A stretch of 55,431 nucleotides of DNA from a virus, in the IMG/VR virus record IMGVR_UViG_3300007523_000015, positions 1 to 55,431 of that record. One strand, given 5' to 3'. Shown here one piece after another: positions 4,743-18,404 of this stretch. Position numbers and translations under genes: made by a program. The notes beneath the pieces were generated by a model. That model was given only the letters and a program-made list of their open reading frames with translations, did not search any database and was not told the DNA's origin. Numbering within the stretch: position 1 is the stretch's first letter; each line of letters starts with the position of its first letter.

Positions 4743-4750
4743 TATTTATC
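4743..4750 (-). promoter_or_regulatory. T4-type late promoter GATAAATA
   Basis: GATAAATA on the minus strand; its G is the last base of the TAG stop of the gp41 C-terminal fragment. It lies 25 bases before the start of the gene at 4718 and would drive the five-gene unit down to 544. Confidence 0.6.
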
Positions 4751-5280
4751 TATTTTTTCTTCAGAAAAGACCTTAACGAGGCAGCACCTTCTAACGGGTC
4801 TACTTTCATGCTCGGCTTAGTCATAGACATGATCTCACCGGATAATGGGTCTATCTTTTGAGCAGTTTTTACCACACTATTCTTCTTCAGTTGATCATAA
4901 ATGTTCTTAGTTGTTGCCATAGTTGCATTATCATCACCCTCTTCCAAGTCTGTGATTCTTAAACTCTTTGTATTGAACATTAAGTCTACTTTCGAACCAA
5001 CACCCGAACTAGAACGCGTCTTCATAAATTGAATTTGGTAACGACCACTTTCTTTCATTGCTGCACTTGTAAAAATACCGACAACGTTATCTGCTGTATT
5101 AACTTTAGAAATACCGCCTGCAATGTGACTTGGGTCGAATTCGATCTCTTCATATGACGAATTGTGTGTAAGAACATCATTAGCAAAGAATAAATGGTCA
5201 CCGGTGGTGGTGATATCTATTGTATCTATTTCACCTATATATTCTATTTCTACAATTTCGTCTTCAAATATTGCTTTCAT
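4750..5280 (-). CDS. gp41: split intein C-half fused to gp41 helicase C-terminal part
   Basis: 176 residues. Residues 1-40 are a C-terminal intein half: MKAIFEDEIVEIEYIGEID, then block F (TTGDHLFFANDVL) and the terminal His-Asn (block G). Residue 41 is the +1 serine of the C-extein, which begins SSYEEIEFDPSH and continues as the DnaB-family C-terminal region. Protein trans-splicing with the half at 6577-7869 would rebuild a gp41 helicase of about 476 residues, close to T4 gp41. The layout and sequence resemble the gp41-1 class of split inteins first found in marine metagenomes. The start overlaps the end of the endonuclease gene by 17 bases. Confidence 0.92.
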   Translation of the reverse strand: MKAIFEDEIVEIEYIGEIDTIDITTTGDHLFFANDVLTHNSSYEEIEFDPSHIAGGISKVNTADNVVGIFTSAAMKESGRYQIQFMKTRSSSGVGSKVDLMFNTKSLRITDLEEGDDNATMATTKNIYDQLKKNSVVKTAQKIDPLSGEIMSMTKPSMKVDPLEGAASLRSFLKKK

Positions 5281-6544
5281 TTAAGAACTCCACGCATTCT
5301 GTTATTGTTTGATGTTTATGTTTTACATAGTCCGCCGACCATACTATTTTAATCATGTATCCTAATTCCTGTAAAATACTTAGTCTGATGCGATCCTCTT
5401 CCCAGATCACAGATGAAGTAATCCCCCTTCTCCTCGGATTAGGTGTATCCCGGGGTGCATATATTGACGGGTTAGCATGATAGACATCTCCATAAAATTC
5501 TATTATCCGATTATTATATATCAGATCGGGCTTGATAAAGTGCCGTTTATATTTTCTTTTGGTCTCGTCATCTAGCACAATTGCTGTTTCATTCTCACCA
5601 TAACAAATGGCCCCATTAATAAATACCGAAATATAATCAAACATTTCTGTAGAAATTTTAGATCTAGATCTTGTAGATTTACACGAATTTGCTAAATTAT
5701 CTATTTTCTTTTTAAACAATTTCTTACCTTCTACCTCGCCGTATTTTCCTACAAATGCATCCTCTGTTCCCTTAAATGCTACTCGTGCCCCATTTATATA
5801 TGCTGTGGTTATATCGTTGGACATTTTTGTTATATATTTGAGATAGCTGGTAGTACCGTCGACTTCACCGTGCCTCGAAATAAACGATTCTATCGATGTG
5901 TTGTTCTTAACTTCCTTACACCGTTGACGACCTTCCACATCCCCCAATTCATCTATATATCGTTGACGAGATACCTTGTAACGTTGATTTTTTAGTTTAT
6001 TATAATATACCTCTGAGCCCTTCTCCTTACCATACTTGATAATAAAGAATTCTTCATTGTATTTGGCAAAATTGTATCCATCGATGTGCTTCTGTGCATA
6101 AGATGCTGCACGTTTTATTAAATATGCTTGCCATTTTTGTCTACCTAAAATTTCACCATATCTTTTTATATAATTGCTCTCGGACGCGCCTCGATTTGAT
6201 AATAATTCGTTTGTTCTCTCCACACCATATTTACTAATGTAGTCTGCTCGTGTACGGGCTGATTTAATACATTTTTCCTTAAATCGCCTATACCCTTCTT
6301 TTAATCCATACCTATAATAAAAGAATTTTTTTGATGATGAATCTTTTCCCAATAGAAGTATTTTCGATATACGCTTGCTGAGCGACGAAAACGATACATT
6401 ATATTCCTTTAAAGTCCGGATATACCCGACTACCCGGCTTGCCGACATTTTCCTAGGATTAAATAATTCCTCAGCAACAATTATCTGCTGTTTTTCAAAA
6501 TCAGTAAACCCAATAGGCAAGAGTTTTGATAAATATTTCGACAT
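5264..6544 (-). CDS. Vsr-like (EDxHD-type) homing endonuclease between the gp41 halves
   Basis: 426 residues from the ATG at 6544, which has an AGAGGA site 8 bases upstream; an in-frame TTG 27 bases earlier is less likely. The body holds several copies of a repeat with a K/R-Y-G-E-x-x-G core (for example ISKYGVERT, IKRYGEILG, IIKYGKEKG, VGKYGEVEG), probably DNA-binding. The C-terminal 100 residues form the nuclease: KPDLIYNNRIIEFYGDVYHA, then W-x-x-D-x-x-R and a GYMIKIVW strand, as in Vsr-like endonucleases. It separates the two split-intein halves, the 'fractured gene' arrangement. A late promoter lies 34 bases upstream. Confidence 0.88.
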   Translation of the reverse strand: MSKYLSKLLPIGFTDFEKQQIIVAEELFNPRKMSASRVVGYIRTLKEYNVSFSSLSKRISKILLLGKDSSSKKFFYYRYGLKEGYRRFKEKCIKSARTRADYISKYGVERTNELLSNRGASESNYIKRYGEILGRQKWQAYLIKRAASYAQKHIDGYNFAKYNEEFFIIKYGKEKGSEVYYNKLKNQRYKVSRQRYIDELGDVEGRQRCKEVKNNTSIESFISRHGEVDGTTSYLKYITKMSNDITTAYINGARVAFKGTEDAFVGKYGEVEGKKLFKKKIDNLANSCKSTRSRSKISTEMFDYISVFINGAICYGENETAIVLDDETKRKYKRHFIKPDLIYNNRIIEFYGDVYHANPSIYAPRDTPNPRRRGITSSVIWEEDRIRLSILQELGYMIKIVWSADYVKHKHQTITECVEFLNESNI

Positions 6545-6576
6545 GTAATTACATCCTCTGTTTAGTTGCAATGCAC

Positions 6577-7869
6577 TTATTTATCTCTTACATACAAGAT
6601 TGACCCCATAGCGAGGCCAGATTCTATACTACATGCCTGGGCTGTAGTTGGGAATATATGAGAACCCGAACAAATAATCTCCTTTCCGGATTTTGTCTTT
6701 ATCTTAAACACTTTTTGTTTCGAATGCCATTTGTCTATAACTGTATTATATACGCCGTCTTTAGACAGGATCTTATCACCTATATTAACATCTTTCAATC
6801 GCACGGTGCCATTTGTTTCAGAAATAATGTTTGTGTTAGGGTGCAGGCAACGGTTCAACTGTGAAGCTGAAACTGTAACAGTCTGTAGTTCCACTGCCAG
6901 GTTACGTAATTCTTCTGTTACATATTTGTCCTTAACAAACAAGTTCTCTGCAGAAATCTTCTTACTCATTGGCATCATTAAATCTAAGTAGTCAACTAAG
7001 ATTGCATCTACTTTTCTTCCCGAATGAATTTCATATTCCTTAATGAATGCTCGTATATCGTTCGACGTACATCCATTGGGAAGTTGCTTAACCCGCAATG
7101 AACCGCCACTCTTTTGCTGCGATGCCCTGACCTTAATGTGAACGTCGTCGATGTTACGCATAACTTCTCGAGTTTCATATCCAGTATGCATTGCATCAAT
7201 ACGCATTGAACAAAGTTTTTCACTAAGTTCTAATGTTAAGTATACTACATTAAATCCAGCCTGGGCCCAATTAACTGCAAGGTTTTGCAAGAAAAGGGAT
7301 TTTCCTGCACCTGATTGTCCTGCAAAGATGGTTATTTCGCCTTTATTAAAGCCGCCATATAGTTTCTCATCGACTGTCTTCCACCCTGTAGAAACTTGTC
7401 CCTTGCCCTCTCTGATCGCCTCGAGACGCTCTTTGGGGTTAGCATAGTAATCTGTTCCCAAATCTTTAACCAGCGCGATCTGTACCGCCGCTTTGATAGA
7501 TGTTTCAACCTCGCCATATCTCCCCTCATCCAATAACTCAGGTGATGCCAATATTGCATCACGCAAAGATTTATATCTACAAAAAAGTTCTATTTCTTTT
7601 AAAAACCATCTATCCTCTTTTGCTGCTACCTCTGGAATAAGTTCAATATTTTTACCCGTAAGTGACCTGACCTGCTCAATAGCCGGCAATGTTGAATAAT
7701 CTTTAAAATGAGAAATAATAATACTAACAACGTCTTTATTTTGCTTATTGTCGAAAAAATTAGCATCTAATATACCGGAACACCTTACAAACAATTCATG
7801 ATTACTCATCATAAATTGTATAAACAACGTTTCTATATCAGAATTGTATTCTTTAATTTCACTTTCCAT
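6577..7869 (-). CDS. gp41: gp41 replicative helicase N-terminal part with split intein N-half
   Basis: 430 residues from the ATG at 7869 (AAGG upstream; the preceding TTG is in frame but less likely). The N-extein (about 340 residues) has the DnaB/gp41 RecA-like core: Walker A GQSGAGKS, Walker [11 protein letters not shown], and motif H4 ending ASQLNR. The intein half starts at the next Cys ([10 protein letters not shown]) and has block A and block B ([11 protein letters not shown]), then stops after 90 residues. Insertion is directly after QLNR, a highly conserved active-site motif. The protein unwinds DNA 5'-3' on the lagging strand with gp61. The upstream GIY-YIG gene overlaps its start by about 11 bases. 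Confidence 0.93.
6578..6585 (-). promoter_or_regulatory. T4-type late promoter GATAAATA before the intein endonuclease
   Basis: GATAAATA on the minus strand, embedded in the end of the gp41 N-half gene (AGA GAT AAA TAA). The endonuclease ATG lies 34 bases downstream, so the endonuclease may be expressed late, separately from gp41. Confidence 0.6.
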
Positions 7870-8737
7870 CAATCTTATCCTTATATTTCTTAATTACAGA
7901 TTCTGATATTTTCTTTTTAGATTCTAAGGAATGATTTTTCCCTGACATACCAGTAACTACCCTTTTTCCAGATTTCCATTCTTCCATTAATCTCTCAGAG
8001 ATTGCAAATTTTTCTTTTGCTGTTTTAGGTGGCAATTTATTTCCTGCATTGGCCTTTCCTATTTTTTCTTTTCTATCATCCGACATTGGTCCTCGCCCTA
8101 ATATCCATCCATTGCTTATATAAGAATTTAATTCATCGAGGCATACCTTTTTTATTATGTCATCTTTTATTATGTATTTCTTACCAGATGGTAACTTGCC
8201 TTTTACCCACCCATCTGATATAAATTTGTCTAGCAAAACCGGATCAATCTTTTTATATTCTATACCGTTGTTTACTGCTATTTTACCTTTTTGTGATTTA
8301 CTCATCCTATCTTTTGTTTCATCGGACCATTTACATCCTGCAGTAGTTGGAATTTTTGTTTTACTTTTTCTTTCTAGCCGTTCTTGTTCGGATAAACTTA
8401 TATAATAGTCCTTTGCAGATTGAGATAATTTTTTAGATGTTTCCTCTGTTGTTATTCTCCCAGCACCCCCTTCTCCGCCGCCAGTTCTGTTCAATAAAAT
8501 TCCGGTCCCGCGGTCTTTTCTTCCCCACCATTTAATATATCTGCGCTCTAATGCAAAAGCACCTACCTCCGATAAATTGTTTTCTAATATAATAATGTAT
8601 GATCTGTTTTTCGGAACAGGGATATTCTTATGGGTACTAAACGCACGGCTGCCGTGACCTTTTCCTATATAATATGGTGTCCCGATTTTTGCTGTAGCAG
8701 AATCTCTGCAACGAATATAGGCATAAATATAAAACAT
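7859..8737 (-). CDS. GIY-YIG homing endonuclease between gp61 and gp41
   Basis: 292 residues. GIY-YIG nuclease at the N-terminus (IYAYIRC ... [12 protein letters not shown]), with the catalytic Glu probably in [11 protein letters not shown] and the following conserved [11 protein letters not shown]. The C-terminal part has NUMOD-like DNA-binding segments ([29 protein letters not shown]). A free-standing gene of this type in an intergenic spacer of the replisome genes is typical of T4-like phages (Seg family logic: cut the same site in a phage lacking the gene). A GATAAATA motif sits only 5 bases before the ATG. Confidence 0.88.
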
Positions 8738-9909: not shown

Positions 9910-10923
9910 TTAAAATTTAAAATAATTCTTATAAGAGTTCCACTGCCAGCCCCGTTTAATGTTCGGTTCTGCTTCCGGCCATCTGCCTTTAATTACATCT
10001 TTGGCATAATCATAGGCAGCATCGGGATGTTTCATTATATAAGGTTCTGCTTCCGGCCATCTTCCCTTAATTACATCTCGGGCATAAGCATAGGCAGCAT
10101 AGGGATGTTTCATTATATAAGGTTCTGCTTCCGGCCACCGTCCTCTAATCACATTCGTAGCATATTCTGATAACCGACCCGAGTCATTTTCTAATAATAA
10201 TGATTCGGCTTCCGGCCATCTTCCCTTAATTACATCTTTAGCATACAAATATGCTGTCCTTTCGTTTTTCAATATGATCGGCTCTGCCTTCGGCCACCGT
10301 CCTCTAATCACATTCTTAGCATATTCGTATGCTTTCATCGGATCTTTCAATATCTTTTGTTCTTCCCTTGAAGATAATTTCTGTGGATTTGGATTTTGTC
10401 TCCTATATTCTATATATTCTTTTCCGGTCATCAATTCTTTAGGTTTGTCCTTTATGAGCACATTATTATTGCCGACACCAATACTAGCTGTCCATAAATT
10501 ATCTAGCGAAGAGACTATAACTCGCGGATCAAGTAATAGTGGTTTATATTTACCTATATCGATGTCATTTATATTTTCGGGTGGGACAATTATTGATATT
10601 TTTGTAATATATTTATTTGCATTTTCGATTGTTCCAGTTACATATTCTTCGTATTCAGTTGCCTGGTTTGGTCCTTTTCCGCTGTTATAATCTAAATCTA
10701 TCTGGGGTTTAAGTCTTTTTCCTATATCTCTGTACAATAAATTCTGATTTATAGACAGAACAACATTTCCAAATCTCGGTGCTACTCTTATATCTCTGGA
10801 CAAACTTACACCATGGTTTCCACTTATTTTATTCGACTTTATAATCCCTAATGCTCCACTTAAATCTGTTCCGTGGTATAAATCAGCAGATCTACTTTCC
10901 ATAATGAATTCAAATAATCTCAT
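9910..10923 (-). CDS. ADP-ribosyltransferase-like protein with capsid-targeting-like N-terminus and C-terminal repeats
   Basis: 337 residues in three parts. (1) Residues 1-10, MRLFEFIMES, resemble the capsid-targeting peptides of T4 internal proteins, with an I-M-E cleavage-like site. (2) Residues about 13-190 look like an ADP-ribosyltransferase fold: LYHGTD near 15-20, VSLSRD near 39-44, FGNVVLSI near 51, and an E-Y-E-E near 90-93 that could supply the catalytic Glu. (3) Residues 194-324 are five 26-27-residue repeats with the core VI[KR]GRWPEAEP. T4 Alt is a packaged, injected ADP-ribosyltransferase, so a similar role is inferred. Activity is unproven; the fold call rests on a few short motifs. 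Confidence 0.6.
   Translation of the reverse strand: MRLFEFIMESRSADLYHGTDLSGALGIIKSNKISGNHGVSLSRDIRVAPRFGNVVLSINQNLLYRDIGKRLKPQIDLDYNSGKGPNQATEYEEYVTGTIENANKYITKISIIVPPENINDIDIGKYKPLLLDPRVIVSSLDNLWTASIGVGNNNVLIKDKPKELMTGKEYIEYRRQNPNPQKLSSREEQKILKDPMKAYEYAKNVIRGRWPKAEPIILKNERTAYLYAKDVIKGRWPEAESLLLENDSGRLSEYATNVIRGRWPEAEPYIMKHPYAAYAYARDVIKGRWPEAEPYIMKHPDAAYDYAKDVIKGRWPEAEPNIKRGWQWNSYKNYFKF
9952..10344 (-). repeat. five tandem 78-81 bp coding repeats (GRWPEAE repeats)
   Basis: The five units encode residues 194-219, 220-245, 246-272, 273-298 and 299-324 of the ART-like protein. Each has the pattern A-Y-x-Y-A-[KR]-[DN]-V-I-[KR]-G-R-W-P-[EK]-A-E-P-x-I. The last two are nearly identical at DNA level, suggesting recent duplication or gene conversion. 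The units look helical. Confidence 0.85.
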
Positions 10924-15114: not shown

Positions 15115-15780
15115 ATGATATTTATCGACAACAAATACACTAAGTGTTATTTTAACATCATTGCTATAGCAAAAGCAAGAATTTCGATTACGGGTTATGT
15201 AGAAAAACATCATATTTTGCCACGATCACTCGGTGGAAATAATACTACATCTAATTTAGTGCAATTAACAGCACGAGAACATTTTATATGCCACGCATTA
15301 CTAACTAAAATGACATCTGGGGATGATAGAAGAAAAATGATTTTTGCTTCTAATATGATGTTGTGTGGTAAAAATAGATATGTCCCGTCTGGTAAAATCT
15401 ATCAGATTGTAAAGGAAGATTTTGCCAAAATGTCTTCTATATTACATACTGGAAAATCTATATCAGATAAACAGAAATTATTAATTTCGGAAGCAAATAA
15501 GAATAAAATTGTTTCAGATGAAACATGTATTAAAATTTCTAATAGTAAGATTGGAAAGAAAAGAAAATTGTTTACCGAATCTGCCAAAGAAAATATGAGT
15601 AAATGCAAATTAGGTGAAAAGAATGCAAATTTTGGAAAAACTTTCACGGCTTGCACAATAGAAAAAATGAAGTTATCTGCACAAAATCGGTCTAAATTAA
15701 AATGCCTCTGCGGAAAGGAATGTTCGCCATCAAATTTCAAAAGATGGCATGGAGATAACTGCAAGTTAATTAAATCCTAG
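15115..15780 (+). CDS. HNH homing endonuclease
   Basis: 221 residues. The HNH core is at residues about 31-70: VEKHHILPRSLGGNNTTSN followed by LTAREHFICHALL, the form found in T4-like MobE/Seg-type genes. After it come NUMOD3-like lysine-rich segments (CIKISNSKIGKK, AKENMSKCKLG) and a C-terminal cysteine pair (KCLCGKECSPSNF). It is inserted on the plus strand between two minus-strand genes and overlaps the 3' end of the 111-codon gene by 15 bases. Own late promoter and ribosome binding site are present, so it looks intact. Confidence 0.88.
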   Translation: MIFIDNKYTKCYFNIIAIAKARISITGYVEKHHILPRSLGGNNTTSNLVQLTAREHFICHALLTKMTSGDDRRKMIFASNMMLCGKNRYVPSGKIYQIVKEDFAKMSSILHTGKSISDKQKLLISEANKNKIVSDETCIKISNSKIGKKRKLFTESAKENMSKCKLGEKNANFGKTFTACTIEKMKLSAQNRSKLKCLCGKECSPSNFKRWHGDNCKLIKS

Positions 15781-16101
15781 TGTTTCTTTTCTATATACTT
15801 CCCAGTCGGCATCTAACTTCTTCGGATCTCGTGCAGGACCATATTTGCCGTATGATATCGACCGCTGGCTCACTCCGCATTTGATCAGGTAATCGTAGAG
15901 CATATTCTCGAAACCAAGGTGTCTATATGACAAAAATGTAATGCTTGTCGCAGTTTCTGATGCATCGTTATATGTCAATGTTATCTTCGTCTGATACATG
16001 CCGGGGGATCGTTCCGATATAATAACATCTAATTCATTGGCTGTCATGAATATTTCTATCAGATCCTTATATCCCCACGATATATTTGTTTCTACTATCA
16101 T
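15766..16101 (-). CDS. small conserved hypothetical protein
   Basis: 111 residues, beginning MIVETNISWGYKDLIEIF and ending DWEVYRKETLGFN. No motif recognised. It starts where the UvsW C-terminal gene stops (one-base overlap) and its 3' end overlaps the convergent HNH gene by 15 bases, so the HNH insertion point is at the end of this gene. Confidence 0.55.
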   Translation of the reverse strand: MIVETNISWGYKDLIEIFMTANELDVIISERSPGMYQTKITLTYNDASETATSITFLSYRHLGFENMLYDYLIKCGVSQRSISYGKYGPARDPKKLDADWEVYRKETLGFN

Positions 16102-16946
16102 TAATAAGTTACCTTTTTAACAGAATACGGATACTCTGCCTCCGCATAAAATTTCTTTCTCTTTGTCAAGTGTCGTTTGGAGAATTTGCAGTTCGAGCAT
16201 ACATCATAAACATTTACAAAGTCCTTATCTGGTGCAACACGAATGCCACGTCCGATACTTTGTATAACCCTTACAAAACTCTTACCAGATTCAAATAATA
16301 CAAGATTAAAAATACGAACAATATTAATGCCCGTAGATGCTACACCATATGTAGCAATAATGACCTTCCCGTCTATTTCTTGAACTTCTTTATATTCGTC
16401 CTTACGGTCCTTTGACTTCATCTGTCCAGAAACAAATACCGAATCTGGTATAAGCAATTGTAACATCTTTCCCGTCTCGATTCTATCTACCAGCACAAGA
16501 GTATTACCCGACTCGGACATAATCTCTACTGACTGTGCAAGAAACTGTAGTCTTGCCTGATTAGTTGTTAACCATTTGAGTTCTGATTGATAATCACTGA
16601 AGGCTGCTGCTTTTAATAAATCCTGCAACTGCCAGACATTCACATGCAATTGTGCAAGTATGCCTTTGTCCTGAAGTTCTTTTGTATTAATTTTGCCAAG
16701 CATCGAGCCAATACATGCCAATATAGACATTTTTTCATGGTCTTCTTCTGGCATTGTTCCGGTTAGTCCCCACCGTATCGGGGCGTTTGCTAACGGGCCA
16801 GATAAGATTTTACGAAGCACATCGGCTTTCGCCTTGTGGCAATTCTGAACTACTGCATCATTAACGATAAAGTTATGGTCATCTTTTATACCTAATGTAT
16901 ATACTTCGGGCGGCTTATCTATTTCTGTTCTTTTTATAAGTTTCAT
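16101..16946 (-). CDS. uvsW: split intein C-half fused to UvsW helicase C-terminal part
   Basis: 281 residues. Residues 1-35 are an intein C-half (MKLIKRTEIDKPPEVYTLGI, then DDHNFIVNDAVVQN) ending in Asn. The C-extein starts with Cys: CHKAKADVLRKIL, the continuation of the DECH motif II. Then come motif III-like WGLTGTMP, motif V ATYGVASTGINI and motif VI QSIGRGIR, the second RecA lobe of a superfamily 2 helicase. Trans-splicing with the half at 17013-18038 would give an intact UvsW of about 487 residues, near T4 UvsW. No endonuclease gene lies in the 66-base gap between the halves. Confidence 0.93.
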   Translation of the reverse strand: MKLIKRTEIDKPPEVYTLGIKDDHNFIVNDAVVQNCHKAKADVLRKILSGPLANAPIRWGLTGTMPEEDHEKMSILACIGSMLGKINTKELQDKGILAQLHVNVWQLQDLLKAAAFSDYQSELKWLTTNQARLQFLAQSVEIMSESGNTLVLVDRIETGKMLQLLIPDSVFVSGQMKSKDRKDEYKEVQEIDGKVIIATYGVASTGINIVRIFNLVLFESGKSFVRVIQSIGRGIRVAPDKDFVNVYDVCSNCKFSKRHLTKRKKFYAEAEYPYSVKKVTY

Positions 16947-17012
16947 AGTTTCTTTATCTTATTCTGAGTTTTGATATCAAATAACAACATGCTGATCCCA
17001 TTCTCTACGATC

Positions 17013-18038
17013 TTATGTATTTCGGTTTATGCTTTTTATATCATCTGCAAGAGACAATTGATCTGCTCGTACCCAACCTCGTTGAGTTAAAAACTTATGA
17101 TTTCCTGTAACTTTTATTTTCTTATTATTATCGAACTCTAATTTATACATTTTTTCATTTGACGATTTTGTCAGATTTTTATAGACTGCATCAACGGTAT
17201 CTTCTTTGAATATATTCTCCATTTCTGAATAGTTTATTATCCTATCCCCGACTTTTATTTCCGATATTTTCAAATAGCCCAATGATGTCAAGACTAATGC
17301 ATCTGGGTGAAAACATTCGTCCACCATAACGCAAACTACTCCTTCGAAGAAATCGTTTATATCGATCTCTAAATCGGTTTCTTTCGAACGCTTTGCTAGG
17401 CTTTCCAGACTTTGCCATGTACATATAGTGTGAGTTTTTAAATACTCTTTCCTATCTCCATAAAATACGCCTACATCTAATCCAAGATTGATATAATCTT
17501 CTTCTGTTTGCGTTACTAAATCCTTAGTCGGCACAATCACTATGCTGCGACCATACTGCTGAACCTTATGGCTTAAAATCGCCGTAATTAGCGTTTTTCC
17601 CGAGCCGGTCGGGCAAATATTTACACCGGTTAAGTTGTTCAAATACGAATTAATGCATTCGGTTTGGTGTTCCTTGATAACAATCGGTTGTCCGGCAAGT
17701 GTATGTCCTTTGGGCCAGGTGATATGTGAATAGCTATCTGCAACTACTTCGTCGAAGACAAAGTCGTGTGTCGTATCTCTAAGATCATCTATTTCTATTT
17801 CATATCCCTGTGCCTGAACAATGGGCAACAATGTATCTAATAGATTAAGATATGTGCGCGCTCCTACATCACAGAAAGAGATCTTACCGTTCCATCTTCC
17901 GAGCCGATAAGCTGGAGTATATCGTGCATGCTCCATAAAGAATTCTAAAGACTGTGTCATTTTTCGTCGTGTGACGATATCAAGCCCCTCGAACTTTACG
18001 TTACATTCATCTTGTATGATTAGTTTTGTTGTTGCCAT
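17013..18038 (-). CDS. uvsW: UvsW helicase N-terminal part with split intein N-half
   Basis: 341 residues. The N-extein (241 residues) has a substrate-grip N-domain and the first RecA lobe: Walker A NICPTGSGKT, motif Ia VPTKDLV, and motif II broken after VMVDE. The next residue is Cys 1 of the intein (CFHPDALVLTSLGYLKISE), with block B near VTGNHKFLTQRG, ending after 100 residues. UvsW is the T4 DNA/RNA helicase for branch migration and late control of origin R-loops. The insertion lies inside the DECH box, so the unspliced protein should be inactive. Neighbours UvsY and UvsX confirm the recombination context. Confidence 0.93.
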   Translation of the reverse strand: MATTKLIIQDECNVKFEGLDIVTRRKMTQSLEFFMEHARYTPAYRLGRWNGKISFCDVGARTYLNLLDTLLPIVQAQGYEIEIDDLRDTTHDFVFDEVVADSYSHITWPKGHTLAGQPIVIKEHQTECINSYLNNLTGVNICPTGSGKTLITAILSHKVQQYGRSIVIVPTKDLVTQTEEDYINLGLDVGVFYGDRKEYLKTHTICTWQSLESLAKRSKETDLEIDINDFFEGVVCVMVDECFHPDALVLTSLGYLKISEIKVGDRIINYSEMENIFKEDTVDAVYKNLTKSSNEKMYKLEFDNNKKIKVTGNHKFLTQRGWVRADQLSLADDIKSINRNT

Positions 18039-18047
18039 TTATATCTG

Positions 18048-18224
18048 TTACGGAGTTTTAGCCGTTAATAATGTGAAAAAGTCCCTGCCCATCTTTTCAT
18101 AGAATGCAGAATCCAATGCAGTACCATCCTGCACTATCTCAATCGGCAATCTTACTGTCATTTCTATCTCCGGAGCAAATTTGTTATTATTCATTGTTAC
18201 TTGTTTTTTTACTAATGTTATCAT
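18048..18224 (-). CDS. small conserved protein between uvsY and uvsW
   Basis: 58 residues from the ATG at 18224, chosen because AAGGAAA stands 5 bases upstream. Product MITLVKKQVTMNNNKFAPEI ... FFTLLTAKTP. Function unknown; position between uvsY and uvsW suggests recombination or replication. The reading frame continues upstream without a stop into a truncated HNH endonuclease (18225-18404), so a fused 118-residue protein is also possible. Confidence 0.6.
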   Translation of the reverse strand: MITLVKKQVTMNNNKFAPEIEMTVRLPIEIVQDGTALDSAFYEKMGRDFFTLLTAKTP

Positions 18225-18404
18225 ATGTTTCCTTGTAATTTTTACCATGCCATTAAGACTTTTAGGCAGTATGTGATGCTTTTCTGTATATCCGGTTAAA
18301 ATCCGTGATGACGTAGAAGTAATAATATTCCTATACCACAAAGTATATTTTGAATTTTTACTCATCTCATCTACAATATCTAAATAGTCACACACTTGCA
18401 TCAT
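18225..18404 (-). pseudogene. 5' remnant of an HNH homing endonuclease
   Basis: About 60 codons. NSKYTLWYRNII followed by TGYTEKHHILPKSLNG matches the N-terminus and the first half of the HNH core of the intact genes at 15115 and 28659. The next residues, MVKITRKHM, align with their LVQLTAREH, but the six residues holding the central Asn are gone and the rest of the gene is missing. It is fused in frame with the 58-residue gene and overlaps the end of uvsY out of frame. Confidence 0.7.

What the first reader, a model, noticed from the sequence alone, without database searches (positions are those of the whole stretch)
16101..18038. UvsW helicase split by a trans-splicing intein inside its DECH box, with no endonuclease
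The two genes end and start with classic intein halves (100 and 35 residues), and the exteins join as MVDE|CHKAKAD, exactly at helicase motif II. The 66-base gap contains no endonuclease, unlike gp41 here. I know of natural split inteins in gp41, NrdA, NrdJ and IMPDH-type genes from marine metagenomes, but not firmly of one in UvsW; it may be a new insertion site and a new fast split intein.
Basis: partly seen in the sequence, partly recalled or inferred. Interest (0 to 1): 0.85.

Follow-up and report, generated by a model that had tools for sequence, protein, structure and literature searches.

The report
Phage helicase rejoined by split intein
A phage DNA-repair helicase is encoded in two pieces that a self-splicing protein element most likely joins together; the element is one of a widespread phage family whose DNA-cutting gene has been deleted here, leaving a recognisable fossil, and relatives show that such broken genes have been fused back together at least three times.

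Summary
uvsW is two genes (N 18038-17013, C 16946-16101, minus strand) ending and starting with intein halves of 100 and 35 residues, inside helicase motif II (DE|CH). There is no endonuclease in the 66-base spacer, and the ligated product is 487 aa. "New insertion site" is wrong. The same split intein, unannotated, sits at the same site in Salmonella phage S16 and relatives, Proteus phage PM2 and Prevotella Lak phages, and in many IMG/VR contigs; PHROGs already has families for the two halves. Relatives carry a ~300-aa PD-(D/E)XK/NUMOD3 endonuclease between the halves. The window lost it: its spacer still encodes FDIKTQNKIKKL*, the endonuclease's C-terminus (0 of 2000 shuffles score as high), and its sister (100/100 support) has the intact gene. 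Among 50 distinct inteins, 11 scattered split rows have endonuclease deletions (at least 8 changes forced), and 3 lineages fused the halves back into contiguous mini-inteins. A near-identical pair (L010/L031) shows homing into an empty DEVH allele with a ~95/50-nt co-conversion tract that brought the +1 Cys. Most likely it trans-splices. Splicing, speed and endonuclease activity are untested.

The parts
17316..18038 (-). UvsW N-extein (241 aa), up to ...VVCVMVDE, first half of helicase motif II
17016..17315 (-). IntN, 100 aa, CFHPDALV...SINRNT: Cys1 and block B TGNH
   Evidence: TIGR01445 39.6 bits
16947..17012 (-). 66-base spacer between the two genes
16943..16981 (-). endonuclease fossil FDIKTQNKIKKL* (last codons of the lost PD-(D/E)XK homing endonuclease); its TGA overlaps the IntC start codon (ATGA)
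   Evidence: (40.6 bits against 40.7 for an intact endonuclease; 0 of 2000 shuffles)
16842..16946 (-). IntC, 35 aa, MKLIKRTEIDKPPEVYTLGIKDDHNFIVNDAVVQN: block F HNF, terminal Asn, penultimate Gln
16101..16841 (-). UvsW C-extein (246 aa plus stop), starting CHKAKAD with the +1 Cys of DECH

Best explanation
The two genes make the halves of a UvsW-type helicase, each fused to half of a class-1-like split intein. The intein halves bind each other; Cys1 forms a thioester, the +1 Cys (the C of the DECH box) takes over the N-extein, and Asn35 of IntC cyclises to release the intein. The block F His probably helps, since the penultimate His is absent. The result is a 487-aa helicase whose motif II exists only after splicing. 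The element is an endonuclease-deleted derivative of a mobile split intein that normally carries a PD-(D/E)XK/NUMOD3 homing endonuclease gene between its halves. Endonuclease-positive relatives home into intein-free DEVH alleles and co-convert the flanks, importing the +1 Cys that splicing needs. In the window the endonuclease was deleted, leaving its last ~13 codons. Inferred reason for keeping them: they overlap the start region of the C-half gene. Shown here: anatomy, homology, site identity, fossil, phylogenetic nesting, co-conversion signature, purifying selection. Inferred: trans-splicing itself, endonuclease activity, and why the fossil is kept.
For: Catalytic residues invariant: Cys1 50/50, TxNH 50/50, block F HN[FY] 50/50, terminal Asn 50/50, +1 Cys 103/103 loci. 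Intein-free relatives have Val at +1 in 107 of 117. dN/dS 0.115 for IntN against the sister L010, and 0.107 for a fused homologue pair. AlphaFold model of the fused homologue L040 (pLDDT 91.6) matches NpuDnaB 4o1r (TM 0.85), NrdJ-1 8ubs (0.83) and gp41-1 6qaz (0.77). Window sister to endonuclease-bearing L010, 100/100. Fossil FDIKTQNKIKKL*, 0 of 2000 shuffles. L010 and intein-free L031 have 97% identical exteins except dense mismatches within ~95 nt upstream and ~50 nt downstream of the insertion. The endonuclease matches TnsA-like PF08722 and NUMOD3; its low-confidence model weakly resembles TnsA and I-Bth0305I.
Against: No splicing data. Penultimate His is missing (Gln here; His in only 2 of 50), which can slow Asn cyclisation in some inteins. 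The ribosome-binding site before IntC is weak in the window. The window halves could not be modelled together. L009 may not be an independent sample.
Confidence: 0.88

Rival explanations
1. The two polypeptides assemble non-covalently into an active helicase, as with the split NrdA of phage Aeh1 or the split gp43 of phage 25, and the intein halves are passive remnants.
For: Such two-piece phage enzymes exist (PMC2988022).
Against: All splicing residues but the penultimate one are invariant and the halves are under strong purifying selection. The +1 residue is always Cys with the intein and mostly Val without it. Unspliced, motif II would be cut between E and C with 135 extra residues attached.
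Confidence: 0.06
2. A decaying intein that no longer splices, in a phage that has lost UvsW function.
For: The endonuclease is deleted and the penultimate His is absent.
Against: dN/dS about 0.1 in the intein, intact helicase motifs, and a non-His penultimate residue also in endonuclease-bearing relatives.
Confidence: 0.04
3. Sequencing or assembly artefact: a contiguous uvsW or contiguous intein broken by an error.
For: The window is an assembled virus contig; three related lineages really are contiguous.
Against: The same sequence is in a second contig (L009). The spacer is 66 bases with an endonuclease fossil and a new ATG, not a single indel. Ten other distinct inteins show similar endonuclease deletions.
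Confidence: 0.02

Closest known systems
Split UvsW of Salmonella phage S16 and relatives (HQ331142 gp114/gp114.1/gp115; also STP4-a, SEA1) and Proteus phage PM2 (NC_055727)
   Same: Same gene, same DE|CH site, split at the same intein position, IntN 57-58% identical
   Different: They keep a 291-aa endonuclease ORF overlapping both halves, and have penultimate His; annotated only as helicase, hypothetical protein, helicase
Prevotella phage Lak-B2 split UvsW (MK250021, code 15)
   Same: Same site and split
   Different: 413-aa ORF between the halves; IntN 44% identical
Fractured-gene split inteins (Dassa et al. 2009, doi 10.1093/nar/gkp095; text not held)
   Same: Phage DNA-metabolism gene broken by a split intein; relatives carry a homing endonuclease between the halves
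   Different: The window has lost the endonuclease; the relatives' endonuclease is TnsA-like PD-(D/E)XK with NUMOD3. Whether UvsW is among the enzymes of that paper could not be checked
gp41-1 and NrdJ-1 split inteins
   Same: Hint fold; long IntN and short IntC
   Different: Different host genes; low sequence similarity (gp41-1 phmmer E 0.0096; NrdJ-1 8.9e-8 to the fused homologue)
Contiguous inteins at motif II of other helicases in Vibrio phages K391 and 159E43
   Same: DE|CH insertion in an SF2 helicase
   Different: Different helicase family, contiguous and longer

Membership tests
Class 1 intein | Cys/Ser at position 1 | tested here: met
   Cys1, 50/50 in the family
Class 1 intein | Block B TxxH | tested here: met
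   TGNH; 50/50 TxNH
Class 1 intein | Terminal Asn and Cys/Ser/Thr at +1 | tested here: met
   Asn 50/50, +1 Cys 103/103
Class 1 intein | Penultimate His (usual, not universal) | tested here: not met
   Gln in the window; His in 2 of 50. Active class-1 inteins without it are known to me from memory, not checked here; hence 'class-1-like' in the statement
Class 1 intein | Hint fold | tested here: met
   Model of the fused homologue L040, pLDDT 91.6, TM up to 0.85 to solved inteins; not of the window halves themselves
Split intein | Halves encoded by two separate genes flanked by complementary exteins | tested here: met
Split intein | Ligated extein produced in trans | not testable with these tools
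   needs an experiment
Fractured gene (split intein plus free-standing endonuclease between halves) | Endonuclease gene between the halves | tested here: not met
   Absent in the window, present in sister L010; a C-terminal fossil remains
UvsW helicase | UvsW N domain and SF2 motifs | tested here: met
   phrog_16 E 4e-20 and 1.6e-42, phrog_16259, phrog_9690; UvsW_N 24.5 bits, just under its 25.3 cut-off; motifs I, II, III, VI

The most novel reading that the evidence does not exclude
Split inteins are not an evolutionary dead end. In this UvsW family the endonuclease between the halves has been deleted many times, and at least three lineages then became contiguous, probably cis-splicing mini-inteins again. 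In two of these lineages (L040/L138 and L161) the linker is the endonuclease's C-terminal DNA read in another frame; L040/L138 also lost the C-half start codon (ATA, ACG). The window is caught at the endonuclease-deleted but still split stage.
Probability: 0.78. Interest if true: 0.75.

Novelty: new member of a known kind. Interest (0 to 1): 0.6.

Why it matters
The window itself adds an endonuclease-free split intein at a site already present, unlabelled, in well-known phages such as Salmonella phage S16. The family matters more. It holds intact, decaying, deleted, re-fused and empty alleles of one intein side by side, with recent homing visible in DNA. That makes the homing cycle of split inteins, and the question of how split inteins arise and revert, directly testable. 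It also offers many natural split inteins without penultimate His, and related cis and trans forms, for protein engineering.

Tried and rejected
Megablast of the region against phage records: no match. Dassa 2009 is not in the paper library, so prior mention of UvsW there is unchecked; no held paper has both 'split intein' and 'UvsW', and of the seven with 'intein' and 'uvsW' only two were opened, by keyword passages, and those show no UvsW intein. Bacterial genomes: 2 weak hits only. The endonuclease model is poor (pLDDT 75, pTM 0.43; no Foldseek match below 0.001), so its fold rests mainly on Pfam. The fossil test was negative or untestable for L122, L158, L179 and L123, and weak for L118 by protein score, although L118's DNA just before IntC matches that of intact L113. 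The ungapped 24-nt DNA test failed for the window against L010 because of a 2-base shift; the gapped blastn and the protein score find the fossil. A first reading of the endonuclease as Vsr-like was dropped in favour of TnsA-like PD-(D/E)XK.

Full report
OBSERVATION. The ORFs are 18038-17013 and 16946-16101 on the minus strand. IntN is 100 aa, IntC 35 aa, the spacer 66 bases, and the joined exteins 487 aa with intact motifs I, II, III and VI. NCBIfam and Pfam recognise the intein halves, and PHROGs recognises both helicase halves. A second IMG/VR contig, L009, is identical over both halves; it may come from the same or a related sample.

SAME SITE IN KNOWN PHAGES. tblastn found Salmonella phage S16 and relatives and Proteus phage PM2 with N-halves matching through the intein. 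Their sequences read MNDE|CFDGDTL... and ...LAHN|CHLATG, with a 291-aa ORF between the halves that overlaps both genes. The S16 record calls these helicase, hypothetical protein and helicase. Prevotella Lak-B2, read with code 15, has the same split with a 413-aa ORF. PHROGs 16259 and 9690 are families of such halves.

THE FAMILY. Three scans of IMG/VR gave loci that were classified by position of N-extein, IntN, endonuclease, IntC and C-extein. Several contigs were fetched twice, so counts below use distinct intein sequences. Of 50 distinct inteins, 35 are split with a long insert (~1.2-1.65 kb), 11 are split with the endonuclease deleted or reduced, and 4 are contiguous. The endonuclease has a TnsA-like PD-(D/E)XK region and a NUMOD3 motif; its model is poor and weakly resembles TnsA and I-Bth0305I.

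THE WINDOW'S SPACER IS A DELETION SCAR. Intact endonucleases end in FDxxTQxKIRKLYE, and this end overlaps the IntC start codon. The window spacer reads FDIKTQNKIKKL*, scoring 40.6 bits against 40.7 for an intact endonuclease and 3.1 for a control stretch; 0 of 2000 dinucleotide shuffles reach it. Its TGA overlaps the IntC ATG. Likely reason for keeping it: the start region of the C-half gene lies inside the endonuclease's last codons. In 25 of 34 endonuclease-bearing rows a 4-5-nt Shine-Dalgarno match sits there, but in the window it is only 3 nt, so this is inference.

TREE. The window is sister to endonuclease-bearing L010 with support 100/100. Endonuclease deletion needs 11 changes on the tree (8 forced by well-supported branches) and fusion 3 (all forced). 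AU tests reject fused inteins as one clade (p 2e-63) and endonuclease-bearing inteins as one side of a branch (p 5e-9). The alignment is short (131 columns), so fine placement is less sure than the scatter itself, and counts of changes alone do not give direction; the fossils do.

RE-FUSION. L040/L138 and L161 are contiguous, each sequence seen in several metagenomes. The DNA before the former IntC start matches the endonuclease 3' end of relatives: 21/24 nt for L040 against L132, 20/24 for L161 against L176, with no window in 200 kb as good, but it is read in another frame. L040 and L138 have lost the IntC start codon (ATA, ACG). The fused intein is under purifying selection (dN/dS 0.107). 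This argues that contiguous forms derive from split ones. L123 is also contiguous and nested, but its linker has no testable fossil.

HOMING. Exteins of L010 (intein plus endonuclease, DECH) and L031 (no intein, DEVH) are 97% identical. Mismatches crowd within ~95 nt upstream and ~50 nt downstream of the site, and L010's flanks there resemble the window's. This is the pattern expected from gene conversion at a cut site; it carried in the +1 Cys, which the empty allele lacks. Most intein-free relatives have Val at +1 (107 of 117; Cys 6, Thr 2, Ala 2). A second pair, L139 (fused intein) and L189 (empty, Cys), shows a similar tract, direction unknown.

MECHANISM AND LIMITS. All splicing residues except the penultimate His are invariant. 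The Hint fold is predicted for the fused homologue with high confidence. Trans-splicing, its speed and the endonuclease's activity are not shown.

LITERATURE. [quoted passage not shown] the reverse path seen here was not found in the papers searched. Walker B intein insertions are known in phage terminases (PMC5050341). T4 has the free-standing homing endonuclease SegE beside uvsW (PMC2988022). Dassa 2009 could not be read, so earlier mention of UvsW cannot be excluded.

VERDICT. Observation confirmed. Interpretation partly supported: a split intein in UvsW, but not a new site, and the missing endonuclease is a deletion. New member of a known kind; the family-level evidence for repeated endonuclease loss and re-fusion is the most interesting part.

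Noticed in passing
L139, L171, L187, L188, L189: uvsW also carries an atypical split intein in the P-loop, GSGK|T, with an N-half of only ~25 residues and a separate ORF between the halves; L139 and L171 additionally hold the fused motif-II intein.
   Followed up: partly
window 4750-7872: gp41 (DnaB-like helicase) is split by another intein, with a REase_MTES_1575-like (Vsr-type) endonuclease ORF at 5264-6571 between the halves.
   Followed up: partly
window 15115-15780 and 18048-18404: HNH homing endonuclease (phrog_655) on both sides of uvsW: one ORF on the plus strand, one N-terminal remnant joined to other sequence on the minus strand.
   Followed up: no
L004, L005, L006: Contiguous inteins at the same motif II position (DE|C) in other helicases: SF2 of Vibrio phages K391 and 159E43, and an SF1 UvrD-like helicase of a human faecal phage contig.
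   Followed up: no
L139 against L189: Near-identical genes with and without the fused, endonuclease-free intein, both with Cys at +1, and a ~115/85-nt tract of changes around the site: loss or gain of an intein without its own endonuclease.
   Followed up: partly
window 9910-10923: ORF with tandem repeats (YAKDVIKGRWPEAEP...) in its C-terminal half.
   Followed up: no
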